Below are positions 1 through 7,788 of a stretch of DNA of 60,159 nucleotides, one piece after another; position 1 is the stretch's first letter, and the number at the start of each line of letters is the position of its first letter. This stretch comes from Thermoplasmata archaeon (GTDB taxonomy: Archaea; Thermoplasmatota; Thermoplasmata; Lutacidiplasmatales; UBA184): assembly GCA_021790425.1 (NCBI GenBank), contig JAJYEA010000008.1, positions 1 to 60,159 on the forward strand, in the 5' to 3' direction. A model generated the notes under the pieces. That model had not been told where the DNA came from. It did not search any database and saw only the letters and a program-made list of their open reading frames with translations. The position numbers and the translations under genes were made by a program.

Positions 1-733
1 TGTCCGATCTCTTCTGGATCGGCATGACCCGGCTGTCCGGGTCCGTCAGGGAGACCTCCTTCTCCCCGGACGCCTTCATCCGGGTGTCGACTTCCTCGTA
101 GAGATGCTTCTTCTCCCGTAGCTTGGCGATCTTCTTCTTCAGGTCCTTGATCCGCTCCGGAGGGAGCCTCTCCTCCTGGCGATCGTTCTTGTCCAGTTCC
201 TGGAGGTAGCGGAGGATCGCCTTGTCCACCGCCCGCATCTGCTCCTTGAGCTTCTCCGGGGTCAGGTGGCGCGAGATCGCGTTCACCGCCTTCAACTTCG
301 TCCCATCGATCCCCACGAGCTTGTCGTCCAGGAGCCCCATCTCCCGGTAGAGCTTCACCATCTCACGGAAGACCTGGCGGAGGGGGTCGGCGTTCTGGGA
401 CCGGAAATCGGCGATGGTCTTGAAGTCCGGGGCCAGCTTCTTCAGCAACCACACGAGTTCGATGTTCCGGTGGCACTCCCGCTCCAGTCGGCGACTGGAG
501 CGGATCGTGTTGAGATACCCGTAGAGGTAGAGCTTCAGAAGGTCGCGGGGATCGTAGGCGGGTCGCCCCATCTCCGGGGGCTCCGCATGAACGAACCCCA
601 GCCTACCCATGTTCAGGCCATCCACGAAGGCGTCGATGAAACGGACGGCGCTGTCGGGCTGGACATAGTCGTCGAGGGTGTCGGGCAACAGGAGGGTCTG
701 GCGGCGGTTCGCTCCCTGTACGTAGTCCGTCAT
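1..733 (-). CDS. IS1182-family transposase, C-terminus beyond the window
   Basis: This is the N-terminal 244 residues of a DDE transposase of the IS1182 type; the reading frame stays open to the window edge. The start MTDYVQG is followed by the DUF772-type N-terminal domain (LLPDTLDDYV, then PEMGRPAYDPRDLLKLYLYG), which is typical of this family. The segment VGIDGTKLKA near residue 136 probably holds the first catalytic Asp of the DDE triad. A charged, probably coiled-coil region follows (KDLKKKIAKLREKKHLYEE). The start codon overlaps the stop of the upstream DUF2080 gene in an ATGA, so the two are probably translationally coupled. No frameshift or stop is seen in the visible part. Confidence 0.88.
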   Translation of the reverse strand, partial: MTDYVQGANRRQTLLLPDTLDDYVQPDSAVRFIDAFVDGLNMGRLGFVHAEPPEMGRPAYDPRDLLKLYLYGYLNTIRSSRRLERECHRNIELVWLLKKLAPDFKTIADFRSQNADPLRQVFREMVKLYREMGLLDDKLVGIDGTKLKAVNAISRHLTPEKLKEQMRAVDKAILRYLQELDKNDRQEERLPPERIKDLKKKIAKLREKKHLYEEVDTRMKASGEKEVSLTDPDSRVMPIQKRSD

Positions 734-930
734 GGACCCTTCCTCCGTCGAATGGGCTTGCCCTGCCATGGGATGTCCGTGAGGAGCAAGTAGGCAGTCT
801 TGCCCAGGAACTCTCGGGGGCAGGTGACCTTCGCCCCCGAACCGTGGGGGACCACCTGCCGCTCGATGTAGCCGGTGATGTTCTCGACGGTGAGGCGGTT
901 CACTCGGTGGAGGTCGACCTTGCGAGCCAT
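730..930 (-). CDS. DUF2080-like transposase-associated small protein
   Basis: This 66-residue protein (MARKVDLHRVNRLTV...) resembles the small DUF2080 proteins that archaeal insertion sequences often carry next to their transposase. The matching part is a beta-rich core of the form VVPHGSGAKVTCPREFLGK, similar to AbrB or SpoVT-like swapped-hairpin folds. Its role in transposition is unknown; DNA binding or regulation is plausible. Start choice: the ATG at 928-930 lies about 28 nt after a TATA-like box at 956-962, fitting a leaderless transcript. An alternative in-frame ATG lies at 940-942. Its stop overlaps the transposase start by four bases. Confidence 0.7.
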   Translation of the reverse strand: MARKVDLHRVNRLTVENITGYIERQVVPHGSGAKVTCPREFLGKTAYLLLTDIPWQGKPIRRRKGP

Positions 931-1206: not shown

Positions 1207-2019
1207 CTAGGTACCGTACCGCCGTTGCCTCCGCTGGTAATCGTGAACCGCCCTCAGGAAGTCGATCTTCCTGAGGCCCGGCCAGAGCACGTCCGAGAAA
1301 TAAAGCTCTGCATAGGCTACCTGCCAGAGCAGGAAATTGGAGATGCGCTCCTCCCCGCTGGTACGGAAGACCAGGTCGGGATCGGGAAGGTCGGCGATGT
1401 ACAGGCGAGCCGCGACCATCTTCTCGTCGATGTCCTCCGGCCGCACCTGTCCCGCGGCCACATCGCGGGCGATGGCGCGGATCGCCTGGAGGATCTCCTC
1501 CCGTCCGCCGTACGCCACCGCGATGTTGTAGAAGTAGTTCGAATAGTCCTTCGTCCGCTCCTCGGCGTAGGCGATCGCGTCCTGGACCATGGCGGGAAGC
1601 TTCGCGCGGTCACCGATGGCCCGGACCCGGATGTGGTGCCGATGGACCCGGGGATCGTCCCCGACGCGCCGGAAGGCCTCGTCGAAGATCGCCATCAGCT
1701 TGTCGATCTCGTCCTTGGGGCGGGAGAGGTTCTCGGTGGAGAGGGCGTAGACGGTGAGCACCTTCACGCCCACCTCGAGACACCAGTTCATCAGCTCCTC
1801 CAGCTTCTCCTTGCCCTTGAGGTGCCCTTCCTCGGTGAGGAGGCCGTGCTCCTGGGCGAACCGGCGGTTACCATCCATGATGATGGCGATGTGCTTCGGG
1901 ACCTTGCCTCCCTTCACCTCCCGGAGGAGCCGTTCCTCCAGCACCGCCTGCGCCGAGGAGGCGATCACGTCGCTCAGGCCCGTGCGCCGGGACGGAGGTA
2001 CCTTATCCGCTCTGTCCAT
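1207..2019 (-). CDS. uppS: Cis-prenyltransferase (UPP synthase family)
   Basis: This 270-residue protein is a cis-isoprenyl diphosphate synthase that adds isopentenyl units in cis configuration to make the long polyprenyl (dolichol-type) carrier lipid used in glycosylation. The family motifs are intact: HIAIIMDGNRRFA with the catalytic Asp at about residue 49, STENLSRP, the GDR stretch, AYGGREEI, and the C-terminal DPDLVFRTSGEERISNFLLW region with the diphosphate-binding arginines. The start ATG at 2017-2019 is preferred over upstream extension because the divergent HAD gene begins at 2038; an AT-rich box at 2046-2054 lies about 31 nt upstream. Length matches archaeal homologues. It lies next to a polyprenyl-synthetase fusion gene, which could supply the allylic primer. 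Confidence 0.93.
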   Translation of the reverse strand: MDRADKVPPSRRTGLSDVIASSAQAVLEERLLREVKGGKVPKHIAIIMDGNRRFAQEHGLLTEEGHLKGKEKLEELMNWCLEVGVKVLTVYALSTENLSRPKDEIDKLMAIFDEAFRRVGDDPRVHRHHIRVRAIGDRAKLPAMVQDAIAYAEERTKDYSNYFYNIAVAYGGREEILQAIRAIARDVAAGQVRPEDIDEKMVAARLYIADLPDPDLVFRTSGEERISNFLLWQVAYAELYFSDVLWPGLRKIDFLRAVHDYQRRQRRYGT

Positions 2020-2037: not shown

Positions 2038-2673
2038 ATGGGGGCGATTAATAGTTCTCCGGGCGCCCTGGTCCTCTTCGACATCGGCGGGGTCCTGATC
2101 CGGTGGAAGGACGAGCGGACCTTCCGGGAGGTGGCCCGCCGGTCCAGGGTGGACTACGCCCGTGTGGTGTCCGTGATGACCGAATGCCGGGAGGGCCTCC
2201 AGAGCGGGAGGACGACGCCCGCCGAGTTCTGGCACCGGGTCGAGGAGGGGATCGGGGTGCCCCTTCCGGGAGGCCGCGAGCGGCTCTGGGTGGGGGAGAT
2301 GGCCCGCCACGCCGTTCCGATCGCGGCCACGTTCCGGATCGCGAGCCAGCTGAGGGAGCGGGGCGTTCCCACGGGGGTCTTCTCGAACACGGACCCCTCC
2401 CACGTGGTCATCTTCCGCCAGAAGCGCTGGTTCGCGGAGTTCGACCCCTGGGTGCTCTCCTACGAGGCGGGCGCCGCCAAGCCCAGCCCGAGGGCGTTCG
2501 CCTGGGCGGAGCGGATCTCCGGGCGCTCGCGGAAGGAGCTCGTCCTGGTCGATGACCGGGCCGCGAACGTGGAGGCGGCGCGGGCCCGGGGTTGGAGGGC
2601 GGTGCACTACCGCAACGCACGGGAAGCCCGCCGGCTGCTCGCGGCGATGCTACGCAGGGAACCCGGTCAGTAG
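2038..2673 (+). CDS. HAD-superfamily hydrolase (HAD-IA type)
   Basis: This 211-residue HAD phosphatase-fold protein has motif I FDIGGVLI, with the nucleophile Asp but Gly in place of the second Asp, as in several HAD-IA subfamily proteins of the YihX kind. Motif II is FSNTD, the motif III lysine lies in AAKPSPRAF, and motif IV is VLVDDRAANV. A helical cap sits between motifs I and II. The substrate cannot be predicted; small phosphorylated metabolites are usual. It is divergent from uppS (18 bp between start codons) and its last 7 bp overlap the end of the convergent prenyl-synthetase fusion gene. A TATA-like CCTTATCC at 2001-2008 lies upstream, inside uppS. Confidence 0.82.
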   Translation: MGAINSSPGALVLFDIGGVLIRWKDERTFREVARRSRVDYARVVSVMTECREGLQSGRTTPAEFWHRVEEGIGVPLPGGRERLWVGEMARHAVPIAATFRIASQLRERGVPTGVFSNTDPSHVVIFRQKRWFAEFDPWVLSYEAGAAKPSPRAFAWAERISGRSRKELVLVDDRAANVEAARARGWRAVHYRNAREARRLLAAMLRREPGQ

Positions 2674-4958
2674 TGCCGTTCGAGCACGTACCAGCAGAAC
2701 GCGCGGAGCATGACCTTGTGGAGGCTCTCCGGAAGGAGGGGGCTTACCTCCTGCCAGCTGTCCTCCACGAGCCGGTCGGCGGTCTTGAGGCAGTCGTCCA
2801 GCGCGTTCACGCTCACGAGGAGGTGGATGACGTCCCGGACGACGGCCGGGTCCTCGGGCTTGGACCGGATGGTCTCGATCAGCCACTCCCGCTTCGATTG
2901 ATCGAGCCGGTTCAGGGCGAGCGCGATGGGGAGGGTGACCTTCCCGGAGGTGATGTCCTCCCCCACGTTCTTGAGCTTCCCGTGGAACCCGCGCAGGTTG
3001 AGGACGTCGTCGACCATCTGGAAGGCGACCCCCAGGTTCTCGAAGAACCGGCCGAGGGCGTCCTCTTGCGGCACCGTCCCGTCCGCTGCGACCACGCCCA
3101 TCCGGGCGAGCACTCCCGCCGGTGCCCCGGTCTTCAACCGGTACATCCCGGCGATGCGCCGCTCGAGGGGTCCCGAGACCCCGGAGGCGACCGCCTCGTC
3201 GACCAGCTCGTCGAAACCGTGGATGTCGAGGGCCTGCCCTGCGTGGCCGGCCCGCATGCCCTCGAAGTAGAGCCGGATCAGGCGGAGCTTCTTCTTGTCG
3301 GAGACGTCCTCGTGCTCCGTGATCGATCCCTCGGCGAGGAAGTAGGCGGCCGTCCCCGAGTTGATGGCGGTCGCCTCCCCGTAGATAACGTGCGCCGTGG
3401 GACCCCCCCGTCGGACGAGGGAGCGGTCCTCCACATCGTCCACCATGAGCGATCCGCTGTGGATGAGCTCCGGCAGGGAGAGCCAGCGGAGATACTTGCG
3501 GCTGTCCGCCCCCAGTGCCTCGCAGCAGGCGAGGGCCGCATACGACCGCCATGCCTTTCCTCCCCGGTCGGTGATTGTCCGGATGGGGGCGATAAGCGAG
3601 GAGGCGATCTCCTGCTCGTCGAGCCCCTCGAGGAGGTGGCCATGGCGGGGGTCGGCGAAGAGGTCCAACGCCTCCTCCCGCGTCGGGTGAAGGGGGAGCA
3701 GGGAGGCCACGGACTTCCGGACCTGTCGGCTGACCGCCTTGAAGAAATCGTCCAGGGTGTCGTTGACCGTGTGACCGCTCCGTTCGAAGTAGGCGAGCCC
3801 CTTGGCGGGCTTCCCGTCGAGCGTCCCCGTCACCCGGCCCTGCCCCTCCCAGAACGAGGGTTTCGAGGTGACCGTGATGAACTCCTGGTCGTCCACCGTG
3901 GCCTCGAGGTCCAGATCGATGCCCAGGGCCGGGGCCTTGAGCGTTCCGGCCGCGGGATAGTGCTCGAACGTGCGACTGCTCGTCCACCATCGTGTCGGCG
4001 CCAGGGAGAAGTCCCGGGAGTACTGGGCCTCCCCCTCCGGGGAGACGCGGACCACCGTGGACCCCACGTCCTTGCCGGTGGCGATGTCCTGCATCCAGAA
4101 CAGGCTCACGTCCGTCCCATCCTCGAGCTGGACCGCGAGCCAGTTCCACGCGATGTCCCTCTGGGTGGGGGACATGTGACTGTCCTGGGTGGCATGACCG
4201 CCGAACTCGTGGTCGTACCAGCCGGAGCCCGTGACGGCGAACCGCTCGCCCCCGATGACCACCTCTCCGGTGACCTCGGTCCTCGGCACGAAGTAGTAGA
4301 ACATCGCCTCCCCCTCCTTCCCGACGACGTGGCCCCGGTCCCCGTGCCGCTGCGGTTTCTTCCGGAGCTCGAAGGTAAGGTCCATTCCGGCCTTCTCCCC
4401 CTCGATGTGGGTCCGGTAGACCCCCGGGGAGACCTTCTCGAACGTGCTCCCCCCGAGGTCCAGATGGAGCCGGTCGGTGCCTACGTGGACGGGTCCCTCG
4501 ATCTCCCGGTCGGGACGGGGGAAGGAGCCGCGCCGGAGGGATTCGATCAGGGCCCGCCGGATGCGCGGGTCCTTGGTGCCCTGTCCCTTCTCCAGGCGCT
4601 CGAGGGCGGCCGGCAGGATGGTCTTCTCGAGCCGGGATTCGAAGAGGCAGTTCTTCTTCTCCACGTCCGTCAGCGACCAGGTCAGGAAGTGGGCGTGGCG
4701 GGGTTGTCGGGTCCGCTGGTCCACCCCGGTGACGATGCGGAAGAACGAGCCGAAGAGCGAGAACGGTCGCCCGGCGGTGTCCTTCACGTGGGCATGGAAG
4801 TACCACCACTCGACCGAGGAGGACGCATGCGGGAGGTCCTGGGTCTCAAGGTCGATCTCCCCCTGAGGCCAGTCCGCTGGGTCCCCCGTCGGCGTCCCCA
4901 TCGAATCACCGCCCGAGGCGGTGTCGACAGAGAGCTGTACTTTCACATGCGTCATCAT
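2667..4958 (-). CDS. Fusion of CrtC/AttH lipocalin-like domain with polyprenyl synthetase
   Basis: This 763-residue protein has two unrelated parts. Residues about 45-400 match the AttH/CrtC (hydroxyneurosporene synthase, carotenoid 1,2-hydratase-like) lipocalin fold: VEWWYFHAH near residue 49 and the hallmark WYDHEFGG at 247-254. Residues about 430-763 form an all-helical trans-polyprenyl synthetase: GGKAWR (466-471), first Asp-rich motif DDVED at 507-511 followed by RRG, KTG near 609, GKVTLPIAL near 672. The second Asp-rich motif reads DDVLN at 650-654, with Asn in the last position. The parts could make a prenyl diphosphate and then hydrate or cyclise an isoprenoid chain. Equally, this could be a prenyl-synthetase-like terpene synthase. 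Product unknown. A second in-frame ATG follows the first directly. It sits next to uppS and HAD. Confidence 0.85.
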   Translation of the reverse strand: MMTHVKVQLSVDTASGGDSMGTPTGDPADWPQGEIDLETQDLPHASSSVEWWYFHAHVKDTAGRPFSLFGSFFRIVTGVDQRTRQPRHAHFLTWSLTDVEKKNCLFESRLEKTILPAALERLEKGQGTKDPRIRRALIESLRRGSFPRPDREIEGPVHVGTDRLHLDLGGSTFEKVSPGVYRTHIEGEKAGMDLTFELRKKPQRHGDRGHVVGKEGEAMFYYFVPRTEVTGEVVIGGERFAVTGSGWYDHEFGGHATQDSHMSPTQRDIAWNWLAVQLEDGTDVSLFWMQDIATGKDVGSTVVRVSPEGEAQYSRDFSLAPTRWWTSSRTFEHYPAAGTLKAPALGIDLDLEATVDDQEFITVTSKPSFWEGQGRVTGTLDGKPAKGLAYFERSGHTVNDTLDDFFKAVSRQVRKSVASLLPLHPTREEALDLFADPRHGHLLEGLDEQEIASSLIAPIRTITDRGGKAWRSYAALACCEALGADSRKYLRWLSLPELIHSGSLMVDDVEDRSLVRRGGPTAHVIYGEATAINSGTAAYFLAEGSITEHEDVSDKKKLRLIRLYFEGMRAGHAGQALDIHGFDELVDEAVASGVSGPLERRIAGMYRLKTGAPAGVLARMGVVAADGTVPQEDALGRFFENLGVAFQMVDDVLNLRGFHGKLKNVGEDITSGKVTLPIALALNRLDQSKREWLIETIRSKPEDPAVVRDVIHLLVSVNALDDCLKTADRLVEDSWQEVSPLLPESLHKVMLRAFCWYVLERHY

Positions 4959-7317: not shown

Positions 7318-7788
7318 CTAGCGGGGGGACTTTCCCTCTCGGAGCAGGGCCCGGCTCTTCTCGGCCCGCCGCTCGCGGGTCTCCGGGGCCTGAGCGGCCG
7401 CGACCCATTCGGCGAAGGCCTTGCGGTGCGAGGGCGCGAGCGCTTGGAAGTTCTTCCGCGCGCGGACGTCCCTCGACAGGGCGGACCGGAGCTCTGCCGG
7501 CAGCGCGATCCGGACCGGGGAACGATCGAGGGCGATCTCGATCTCCACCCGGTCTCCGGAGGACTTCTGGATCCTCTCGCGGGTCGCGCTGTTCACGACC
7601 AGGAAGAAGACCCCTTCCCCCTGGGGCATGAGCGAGGAGGCGAAGGGGACCCCGTCGATGCTTCCCTTCACCCGCTGGTGCGAGCGGTGGCCCTCGCGCT
7701 CCGAGAGCTTCCGAGGGATCGGGGCAAAGGTCCACGTCCCGACCCCCTCGGGTCGAACGAGCGTGGTGGAGAATCGGACAGGCGCCAT
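7318..7788 (-). CDS. DUF1905/YdeI (OmdA)-type protein
   Basis: This 156-residue protein combines a DUF1905 beta-barrel (residues about 5-100: VKGSIDGVPF, then GEGVFFLVVNSATRERI) with the C-terminal YdeI/OmpD-associated helical tail (FQALAPSHRKAFAEWV, then ETRERRAEKSRALLREGK). The family is widespread in bacteria and some archaea; members have been linked to bacteriocin protection, but the biochemical role is unknown. The start ATG at 7786-7788 gives the usual family N-terminus. It is a single gene between a convergent zinc-ribbon gene and the aminopeptidase gene on the same strand (99 bp upstream). Transfer from bacteria is plausible but cannot be tested here. Confidence 0.83.
   Translation of the reverse strand: MAPVRFSTTLVRPEGVGTWTFAPIPRKLSEREGHRSHQRVKGSIDGVPFASSLMPQGEGVFFLVVNSATRERIQKSSGDRVEIEIALDRSPVRIALPAELRSALSRDVRARKNFQALAPSHRKAFAEWVAAAQAPETRERRAEKSRALLREGKSPR

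What the first reader, a model, noticed from the sequence alone, without database searches (positions are those of the whole stretch)
2667..4958. Lipocalin/CrtC-like domain fused to a polyprenyl synthetase with an altered second Asp motif
One 763-residue frame holds an AttH/CrtC domain (WYDHEFGG) and a prenyl synthetase with an intact first motif DDVED but DDVLN as the second. CrtC acts on finished carotenoid chains, synthetases on diphosphates, so the pairing suggests either channelled isoprenoid hydration or a prenyl-synthetase-like terpene cyclase. No carotenoid genes are nearby.
Basis: partly seen in the sequence, partly recalled or inferred. Interest (0 to 1): 0.65.

Follow-up and report, generated by a model that had tools for sequence, protein, structure and literature searches.

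The report
Two-in-one isoprenoid chain-making and capping enzyme
One archaeal protein joins an enzyme that builds isoprenoid chains to a domain that, in its known relatives, adds water to the tail of such chains; the same pairing occurs, apparently unstudied, in dozens of unrelated bacteria, often beside sugar-attaching genes.

Summary
A 763-residue minus-strand frame (2667-4958) carries a CrtC/AttH two-barrel lipocalin domain (residues 49-393) and a polyprenyl synthetase domain (455-713). It is not an assembly error: at least 80 uninterrupted full-length relatives (43-60% identity) occur in Thermoplasmata, Myxococcota, Bacteroidota and Cyanobacteria, with remoter fusions in Tolypothrix and Streptomyces. 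The cyclase hint fails: DDxxN is the normal second motif of human-type GGPP synthases, and every residue needed for chain coupling is invariant, including the GGKxxR arginine whose loss turns such synthases into terpene synthases. The putative proton-donating Asp of the lipocalin domain (WYDHEFG) and its Trp pair are also invariant. The fold matches kievitone hydratase, which adds water to a prenyl tail. Best explanation: the synthetase makes a C20 or longer prenyl diphosphate, and the lipocalin domain protonates its far-end double bond so that water adds (or, less likely, a ring closes). Glycosyltransferases of four kinds adjoin or are fused to the gene elsewhere, including one Tolypothrix sulfotransferase-glycosyltransferase-CrtC-synthetase chain. 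The archaeon itself shows no phytoene synthase, P450 or nearby glycosyltransferase, so its end product is unknown. No activity was tested; I found no publication on the fusion.

The parts
2667..4958 (-). Whole fusion gene, 763 aa
   Evidence: Open frame; conserved full length in 80 other loci without stops
3780..4814 (-). CrtC/AttH-type double lipocalin domain, residues 49-393 (Pfam CrtC 4200-4814, Lipocalin_9 3780-4154)
   Evidence: Pfam; AttH and kievitone hydratase by sequence and fold
4800..4811 (-). EWWY, residues 50-53; W51 and W52 invariant
   Evidence: Alignment A2
4200..4220 (-). WYDHEFG, residues 247-253; D249 is the proposed proton donor
   Evidence: D249 invariant; aligns with WLDREW of AttH and WYDRQWG of kievitone hydratase
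4140..4148 (-). WNW, residues 271-273; W271 and W273 invariant, proposed cation-stabilising pair
3630..3755 (-). Helical connection between the domains, residues 402-443
   Evidence: Model secondary structure, high pLDDT
2820..3596 (-). Polyprenyl synthetase domain, residues 455-713
   Evidence: Pfam; fold
3546..3563 (-). GGKAWR, residues 466-471; K468 and R471 invariant, IPP-binding motif
   Evidence: role of the Arg from PMC7484799
3405..3440 (-). First Asp motif DDVED (507-511) and RRG (516-518)
   Evidence: Invariant D507, D508, D511, R516, R517
3129..3134 (-). KT, residues 609-610; K609 invariant
2997..3011 (-). Second Asp motif DDVLN, residues 650-654; N654 invariant in 81 sequences

Best explanation
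A bifunctional isoprenoid enzyme. The C-terminal domain couples IPP to allylic diphosphates and makes a prenyl diphosphate, probably C20 or longer. The N-terminal CrtC/AttH-type lipocalin domain takes the far (omega) end of that chain, or of an alcohol derived from it, into its barrel. Asp249 protonates the terminal isopropylidene double bond, nearby tryptophans stabilise the tertiary cation, and water captures it, giving an omega-tertiary-hydroxy prenyl product. In many bacteria this product is then glycosylated and perhaps exported. Shown here: domain composition, conservation, fold, invariant motifs, partner genes elsewhere. Inferred: both activities, order of steps, product, any channelling, and its use in the archaeon.
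For: All synthase coupling residues and the lipocalin Asp and Trp residues are invariant in widely separated phyla. Confident two-domain model, pLDDT 89.6, pTM 0.87; N-domain fold matches kievitone hydratase, C-domain matches GGPP synthases. Known chemistry: RgCrtC Asp268 essential (PMC4717167); RgCrtC hydrates C12-C20 terpenes at the terminal double bond (PMC12402844); kievitone hydratase hydrates a prenyl group (PMC5805349). Glycosyltransferase partners: GT28-like gene plus two P450s and a methyltransferase in Spirosoma/Telluribacter, GT28-like in Iningainema, GT-C-like membrane protein in 18 loci, and a single Tolypothrix chain with sulfotransferase, glycosyltransferase, CrtC and synthetase domains next to an ABC exporter.
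Against: No activity tested. RgCrtC's essential His239 and Trp241 could not be placed; the aligned stretch here reads MFYYF, so the hydration site is not identical. AttH, the closest structure, has no known function. RgCrtC converts geranylgeraniol poorly (4%, PMC12402844) and no diphosphate substrate is reported there. The archaeon has no obvious downstream genes. The Streptomyces relative has Glu for Asp249 and the Nitrosomonas one has lost the motif.
Confidence: 0.5

Rival explanations
1. Same architecture, but the lipocalin domain is a proton-initiated cyclase: Asp249 protonates the omega double bond of the prenyl diphosphate and an internal double bond captures the cation, giving a cyclic prenyl diphosphate, as class II cyclases do with another fold.
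For: Identical first step and residues; PMC4717167 draws the analogy of CrtC to squalene-hopene cyclase; PvCPS joins a class II cyclase to a GGPP synthase whose prenyltransferase domain is among the sequence and fold matches; two P450s in the Spirosoma cluster fit a cyclic diterpenoid.
Against: The characterised relatives that I found described (CrtC, kievitone hydratase) hydrate rather than cyclise prenyl chains; I know of no lipocalin-fold class II terpene cyclase.
Confidence: 0.2
2. The protein is a GGPP or longer-chain synthase and the lipocalin domain does no chemistry: it only binds, solubilises or hands over the hydrophobic product.
For: Lipocalin folds often only bind ligands (my knowledge); the Nitrosomonas relative has lost the Asp motif yet keeps a synthase domain; unfused synthase relatives exist in Streptomyces.
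Against: Asp249, His250 and the Trp pair are invariant over 60 aligned members from four phyla, more than binding alone would require.
Confidence: 0.2
3. The synthetase domain is itself a terpene synthase (synthase-like cyclase).
For: One fungal terpene synthase keeps a DDLLN motif (PMC7484799), so the motif alone does not exclude it.
Against: K468, R471, H500, R516, R517 and K609, the IPP- and diphosphate-binding set, are invariant in 81 sequences; loss of the Arg at the R471 position goes with loss of coupling in fungal and insect terpene synthases of this origin (PMC7484799).
Confidence: 0.07
4. A carotenoid pathway enzyme: the synthase supplies GGPP and the lipocalin domain is a true carotenoid 1,2-hydratase.
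For: PF07143 match over cut-off.
Against: No squalene/phytoene synthase in 61 genomes of the family; closest structures are AttH and kievitone hydratase; no carotenoid gene seen among neighbours elsewhere.
Confidence: 0.03

Closest known systems
DDxxN-type geranylgeranyl diphosphate synthase (human GGPS1, fungal GGPPS)
   Same: First motif DDxxD, second motif DDxxN, GGKxxR, RRG, Lys-Thr, GEDxxxGK (PMC4106277, PMC7484799)
   Different: Fused behind a lipocalin domain; family signature GGKxWRSYA; about 25-35% identity only; in profile searches archaeal and bacterial prenyl synthases score equally well
Carotenoid 1,2-hydratase CrtC (RgCrtC)
   Same: PF07143 domain, catalytic Asp position, Trp-x-Trp pair
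   Different: His239/Trp241/Tyr266 not located; no carotenoid pathway; fused to a prenyl synthase
Kievitone hydratase (7a0q, 7a0t)
   Same: Fold (TM 0.78 on the target), WYDxxxG and WxW motifs
   Different: About 14% identity over the structural alignment; a secreted fungal single-domain enzyme acting on prenylated isoflavonoids (PMC5805349)
AttH, Nitrosomonas europaea NE1406 (2ich)
   Same: Best sequence and fold match of the N-domain
   Different: Single domain, function unknown
Bifunctional copalyl diphosphate synthase PvCPS (8v0f, 6v0k)
   Same: A prenyl synthase fused to a domain that acts on the far end of the chain
   Different: Class II cyclase domain of unrelated fold, placed before the synthase; fungal

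Membership tests
trans-isoprenyl diphosphate synthase (PF00348), DDxxN GGPPS type | PF00348 over cut-off, both Asp motifs, GGKxxR, RRG, Lys | tested here: met
   162.4 bits against 27; residues invariant in 81 sequences
trans-isoprenyl diphosphate synthase (PF00348), DDxxN GGPPS type | Forms C20 (or longer) diphosphate | not testable with these tools
   Only small residues before the first motif (G502, S503) suggest it
IDS-like terpene synthase | Loss of the IPP-binding Arg of the GGKxxR/KKxR region and of coupling | tested here: not met
   R471 invariant, 81 of 81; significance from PMC7484799
Carotenoid 1,2-hydratase (CrtC) | PF07143 domain | tested here: met
   87.3 bits against 22.5
Carotenoid 1,2-hydratase (CrtC) | Essential Asp268 | tested here: inconclusive
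   D249 of WYDHEFG is invariant and matches the Asp of AttH and kievitone hydratase; RgCrtC itself was not available to align
Carotenoid 1,2-hydratase (CrtC) | Essential His239, Trp241, Tyr266 | tested here: inconclusive
   Nearest stretches read MFYYF and GWYD; no RgCrtC sequence to align
Carotenoid 1,2-hydratase (CrtC) | Carotenoid substrate / pathway in host | tested here: not met
   No PF00494 in 61 genomes of the family
Prenyl hydratase of the kievitone hydratase fold | Double lipocalin fold with Asp and Trp-x-Trp motifs | tested here: met
   Foldseek E 1.1e-14, TM 0.78 on target; aligned motifs
Prenyl hydratase of the kievitone hydratase fold | Hydration of a prenyl double bond | not testable with these tools
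   Needs enzyme assay
Family 2 encapsulin cargo polyprenyl transferase (NF041169) | Curated score cut-off | tested here: not met
   125.5 bits against 450
Bifunctional class II cyclase-GGPPS (PvCPS type) | Helical class II cyclase domain before the synthase domain | tested here: not met
   Only CrtC and Lipocalin_9 found there; the model is beta-barrel

The most novel reading that the evidence does not exclude
The lipocalin domain is a proton-initiated terpene cyclase of a new fold that cyclises the prenyl diphosphate made by its own synthase domain, so that one protein of Archaea and Bacteria makes a ring-bearing terpenoid diphosphate from C5 units.
Probability: 0.2. Interest if true: 0.85.

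Novelty: new variant of a known kind. Interest (0 to 1): 0.62.

Why it matters
A conserved two-domain isoprenoid enzyme of Thermoplasmata, Myxococcota, Bacteroidota, Cyanobacteria and Actinomycetota is annotated, where annotated records were seen, only as 'polyprenyl synthetase family protein'. If both domains work, it is a one-chain route from C5 units to a tail-modified prenyl lipid, a new source of regioselective terpene hydratases, and a handle on an unknown class of glycosylated, sometimes sulfated and perhaps exported prenyl lipids. Named strains in the set (Spirosoma panaciterrae DSM 21099, Telluribacter humicola KCTC 42819) make it directly testable.

Tried and rejected
Assembly artefact: rejected. 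Carotenoid pathway in the host: rejected. P450 partner in the archaeon: none in 41 genomes. Canonical class I terpene synthase in the host: PF19086 gave nothing, but no control rang either, so uninformative. Conserved operon in Thermoplasmata: neighbours differ even within the genus. Other long CrtC frames in the phylum: the one opened (G311, L127) has a CrtC-like end on a membrane-type protein and no synthase by eye. First neighbour clusters in Myxococcota (DUF2378, glutamine amidotransferase, GST, efflux parts) gave no theme. Nitrosomonas N-domain against the family profile: weak match over 68 columns only. A wrong-frame plasmid query was repeated correctly. Literature searches on the fusion were empty or off topic. 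Deep joins of the tree with the plasmid sequences are long-branch effects and not used.

Full report
CHECK OF THE OBSERVATION. The frame is real: minus strand, 2667-4958, 763 aa. Pfam gives three strong, non-overlapping domains: CrtC 49-253, Lipocalin_9 269-393, polyprenyl_synt 455-713. The quoted motifs are at 247-253 (WYDHEFG), 507-511 (DDVED) and 650-654 (DDVLN). The window is a whole 60-kb contig of a genome 98.56% complete and 0.26% contaminated. Its named close relatives are Thermoplasmata MAGs. The gene lies 2.7 kb from the contig end.

THE FUSION IS NOT AN ARTEFACT. All four same-genus genomes and three of four genomes of a second genus carry it full length at 54-59% identity. The other genera of the family that were searched do not. 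A scan of one genome per prokaryote species found 155 relatives, of which the best 80 were kept. All 80 cover the protein from about residue 30 to 760 or better (43-60% identity), and all are single uninterrupted frames. By record titles they come from Thermoplasmata, Myxococcota/Deltaproteobacteria, Bacteroidota (Spirosoma, Telluribacter, Saprospiraceae, Chitinophagales) and a cyanobacterium (Iningainema tapete). Some MAG titles look unreliable, such as 'Klebsiella pneumoniae' for L055. In a tree the seven Thermoplasmata sequences form one supported clade (99) among mainly myxococcal sequences. One transfer followed by vertical descent would give that, but the direction is not proven. More distant fusions sit on plasmids of Tolypothrix sp. 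PCC 7601 and 7712 (36% identity over 743 columns for PCC 7601) and of Streptomyces canus (31%).

THE SYNTHETASE DOMAIN. In 81 sequences the following are invariant: K468 and R471 of GGKxWR, H500, D507/D508/D511, R516/R517, K609, Q647, D650/D651 and N654. DDxxN is the natural second motif of human GGPP synthase (DDYAN, PMC4106277) and of fungal GGPP synthases (PMC7484799). In the fungal work, an Arg-to-Pro change at the position equivalent to the Arg of the insect KKxR motif abolished coupling and gave terpene synthase activity. Changing the second motif did not, and one natural terpene synthase even keeps DDLLN. I take that Arg to be R471 here, from its GGKxxR context; it is present in every sequence. 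I therefore predict a coupling synthase. The residues just before the first motif are small (G502, S503), which by the usual chain-length rules (my knowledge) argues for C20 or longer. The remote Streptomyces protein has DDVID and the Nitrosomonas one DDVIS, so the third position varies in the wider group. No curated NCBIfam cut-off is reached by the window protein. The genome has two other synthases. One adjoins a gene that reads like geranylgeranyl reductase (my reading of the sequence, not a family search), so this copy is probably not needed for membrane lipids.

THE LIPOCALIN DOMAIN. The AlphaFold model of the whole protein is confident (pLDDT 89.6, pTM 0.87), which also suggests a defined placement of the two domains. 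Foldseek's best matches to the N-domain are AttH (2ich) and kievitone hydratase (7a0q, 7a0t). The best matches to the C-domain are GGPP and other prenyl synthases. Sequence alignments put WYDHEFG on WLDREW (AttH) and WYDRQWG (kievitone hydratase), and WNW on WDW and WTW. In RgCrtC, Asp268 is essential and proposed to protonate the substrate (PMC4717167). W110, W283 and W285 are critical for cation stabilisation, and the enzyme hydrates more than twenty C12-C20 terpenes at the terminal double bond (PMC12402844). Kievitone hydratase makes a tertiary alcohol from a prenyl group (PMC5805349). Here D249, W51, W52, W271 and W273 are invariant. RgCrtC's His239, Trp241 and Tyr266 could not be located with confidence, so I do not file it as CrtC.

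PARTNER GENES. In the archaea the gene stands alone: neighbours differ between species. Elsewhere glycosyltransferases recur. (a) In Spirosoma (two species) and Telluribacter the fusion sits with an LMF1-like membrane protein, an FkbM methyltransferase, a GT28-like glycosyltransferase and two cytochromes P450. The GT28-like gene also adjoins the fusion in Iningainema. (b) Eighteen loci, by title mostly myxococcal or deltaproteobacterial, have a membrane protein of about 600 aa nearby, 12 on the same strand, median distance 13 bp. It has no convincing Pfam match. Its model (pLDDT 89.2) best matches GT-C enzymes (OST, ArnT, PglB, AftB), E down to 5e-5 with modest TM-scores near 0.37. (c) GT2 enzymes lie beside two related Bacteroidota loci, and HMG-CoA reductase beside two others. 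(d) In Tolypothrix one 1509-aa chain holds sulfotransferase, glycosyltransferase, CrtC and synthetase domains and is flanked by ABC exporter genes. The Streptomyces fusion also lies beside ABC transporter genes. No background rate for glycosyltransferase neighbours was measured, so (b) and (c) are suggestive. The association in (a) across two phyla and the physical fusion in (d) weigh most.

MECHANISM. Elongation takes place in the C-domain. Asp249 in the barrel protonates the far-end double bond. Water captures the cation (favoured), or an internal double bond does (alternative). Glycosylation of the resulting alcohol would explain the partners. A tethered arrangement could let a long product reach the barrel, but coordinates and PAE were not available to measure this. 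In the archaeon, which shows no phytoene synthase, P450 or nearby glycosyltransferase, the end product is open.

NOVELTY. Both domains are known kinds. Their fusion as a conserved two-domain family appears undescribed in the searched library, which lacks most subscription papers. I rate it a new variant of a known kind: bifunctional terpenoid enzymes such as PvCPS already join a tail-protonating domain to a GGPP synthase, but with an unrelated fold.

Noticed in passing
L144:12646-17175 (Tolypothrix sp. PCC 7601 plasmid, WP_096622351.1): A single 1509-aa chain with sulfotransferase, glycosyltransferase, CrtC-lipocalin and polyprenyl synthetase domains, flanked by ABC exporter genes.
   Followed up: partly
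L089:7926-17297 and L090, L099: Spirosoma/Telluribacter cluster: fusion, LMF1-like protein, FkbM methyltransferase, GT28-like glycosyltransferase and two P450s; looks like an uncharacterised terpenoid gene cluster.
   Followed up: partly
L040:10304-12103 and 16 relatives (alignment A5): About 600-aa membrane protein without Pfam family whose model resembles GT-C glycosyltransferases (OST, ArnT, PglB, AftB).
   Followed up: partly
L146:6993-11709 (Nitrosomonas stercoris plasmid 1): A remote relative whose N-domain seems to have lost the Asp motif, followed by a flavin monooxygenase-like gene and a carboxyl methyltransferase gene.
   Followed up: partly
L124:925-1992 and L149 (genome G314): N-terminal part of the same fusion family in another Thermoplasmatota family, cut off by the contig end.
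   Followed up: yes
window 1213-1881 (-): UppS-family cis-prenyltransferase close to the fusion, with a HAD-type hydrolase frame convergent to the fusion and overlapping its end by 7 bases (to 2673).
   Followed up: no
window 2-769 (-): IS1182-type transposase frame running off the contig end.
   Followed up: no
window 7318-7788 (-): DUF1905 plus OmdA/YdeI protein in an archaeal contig.
   Followed up: no
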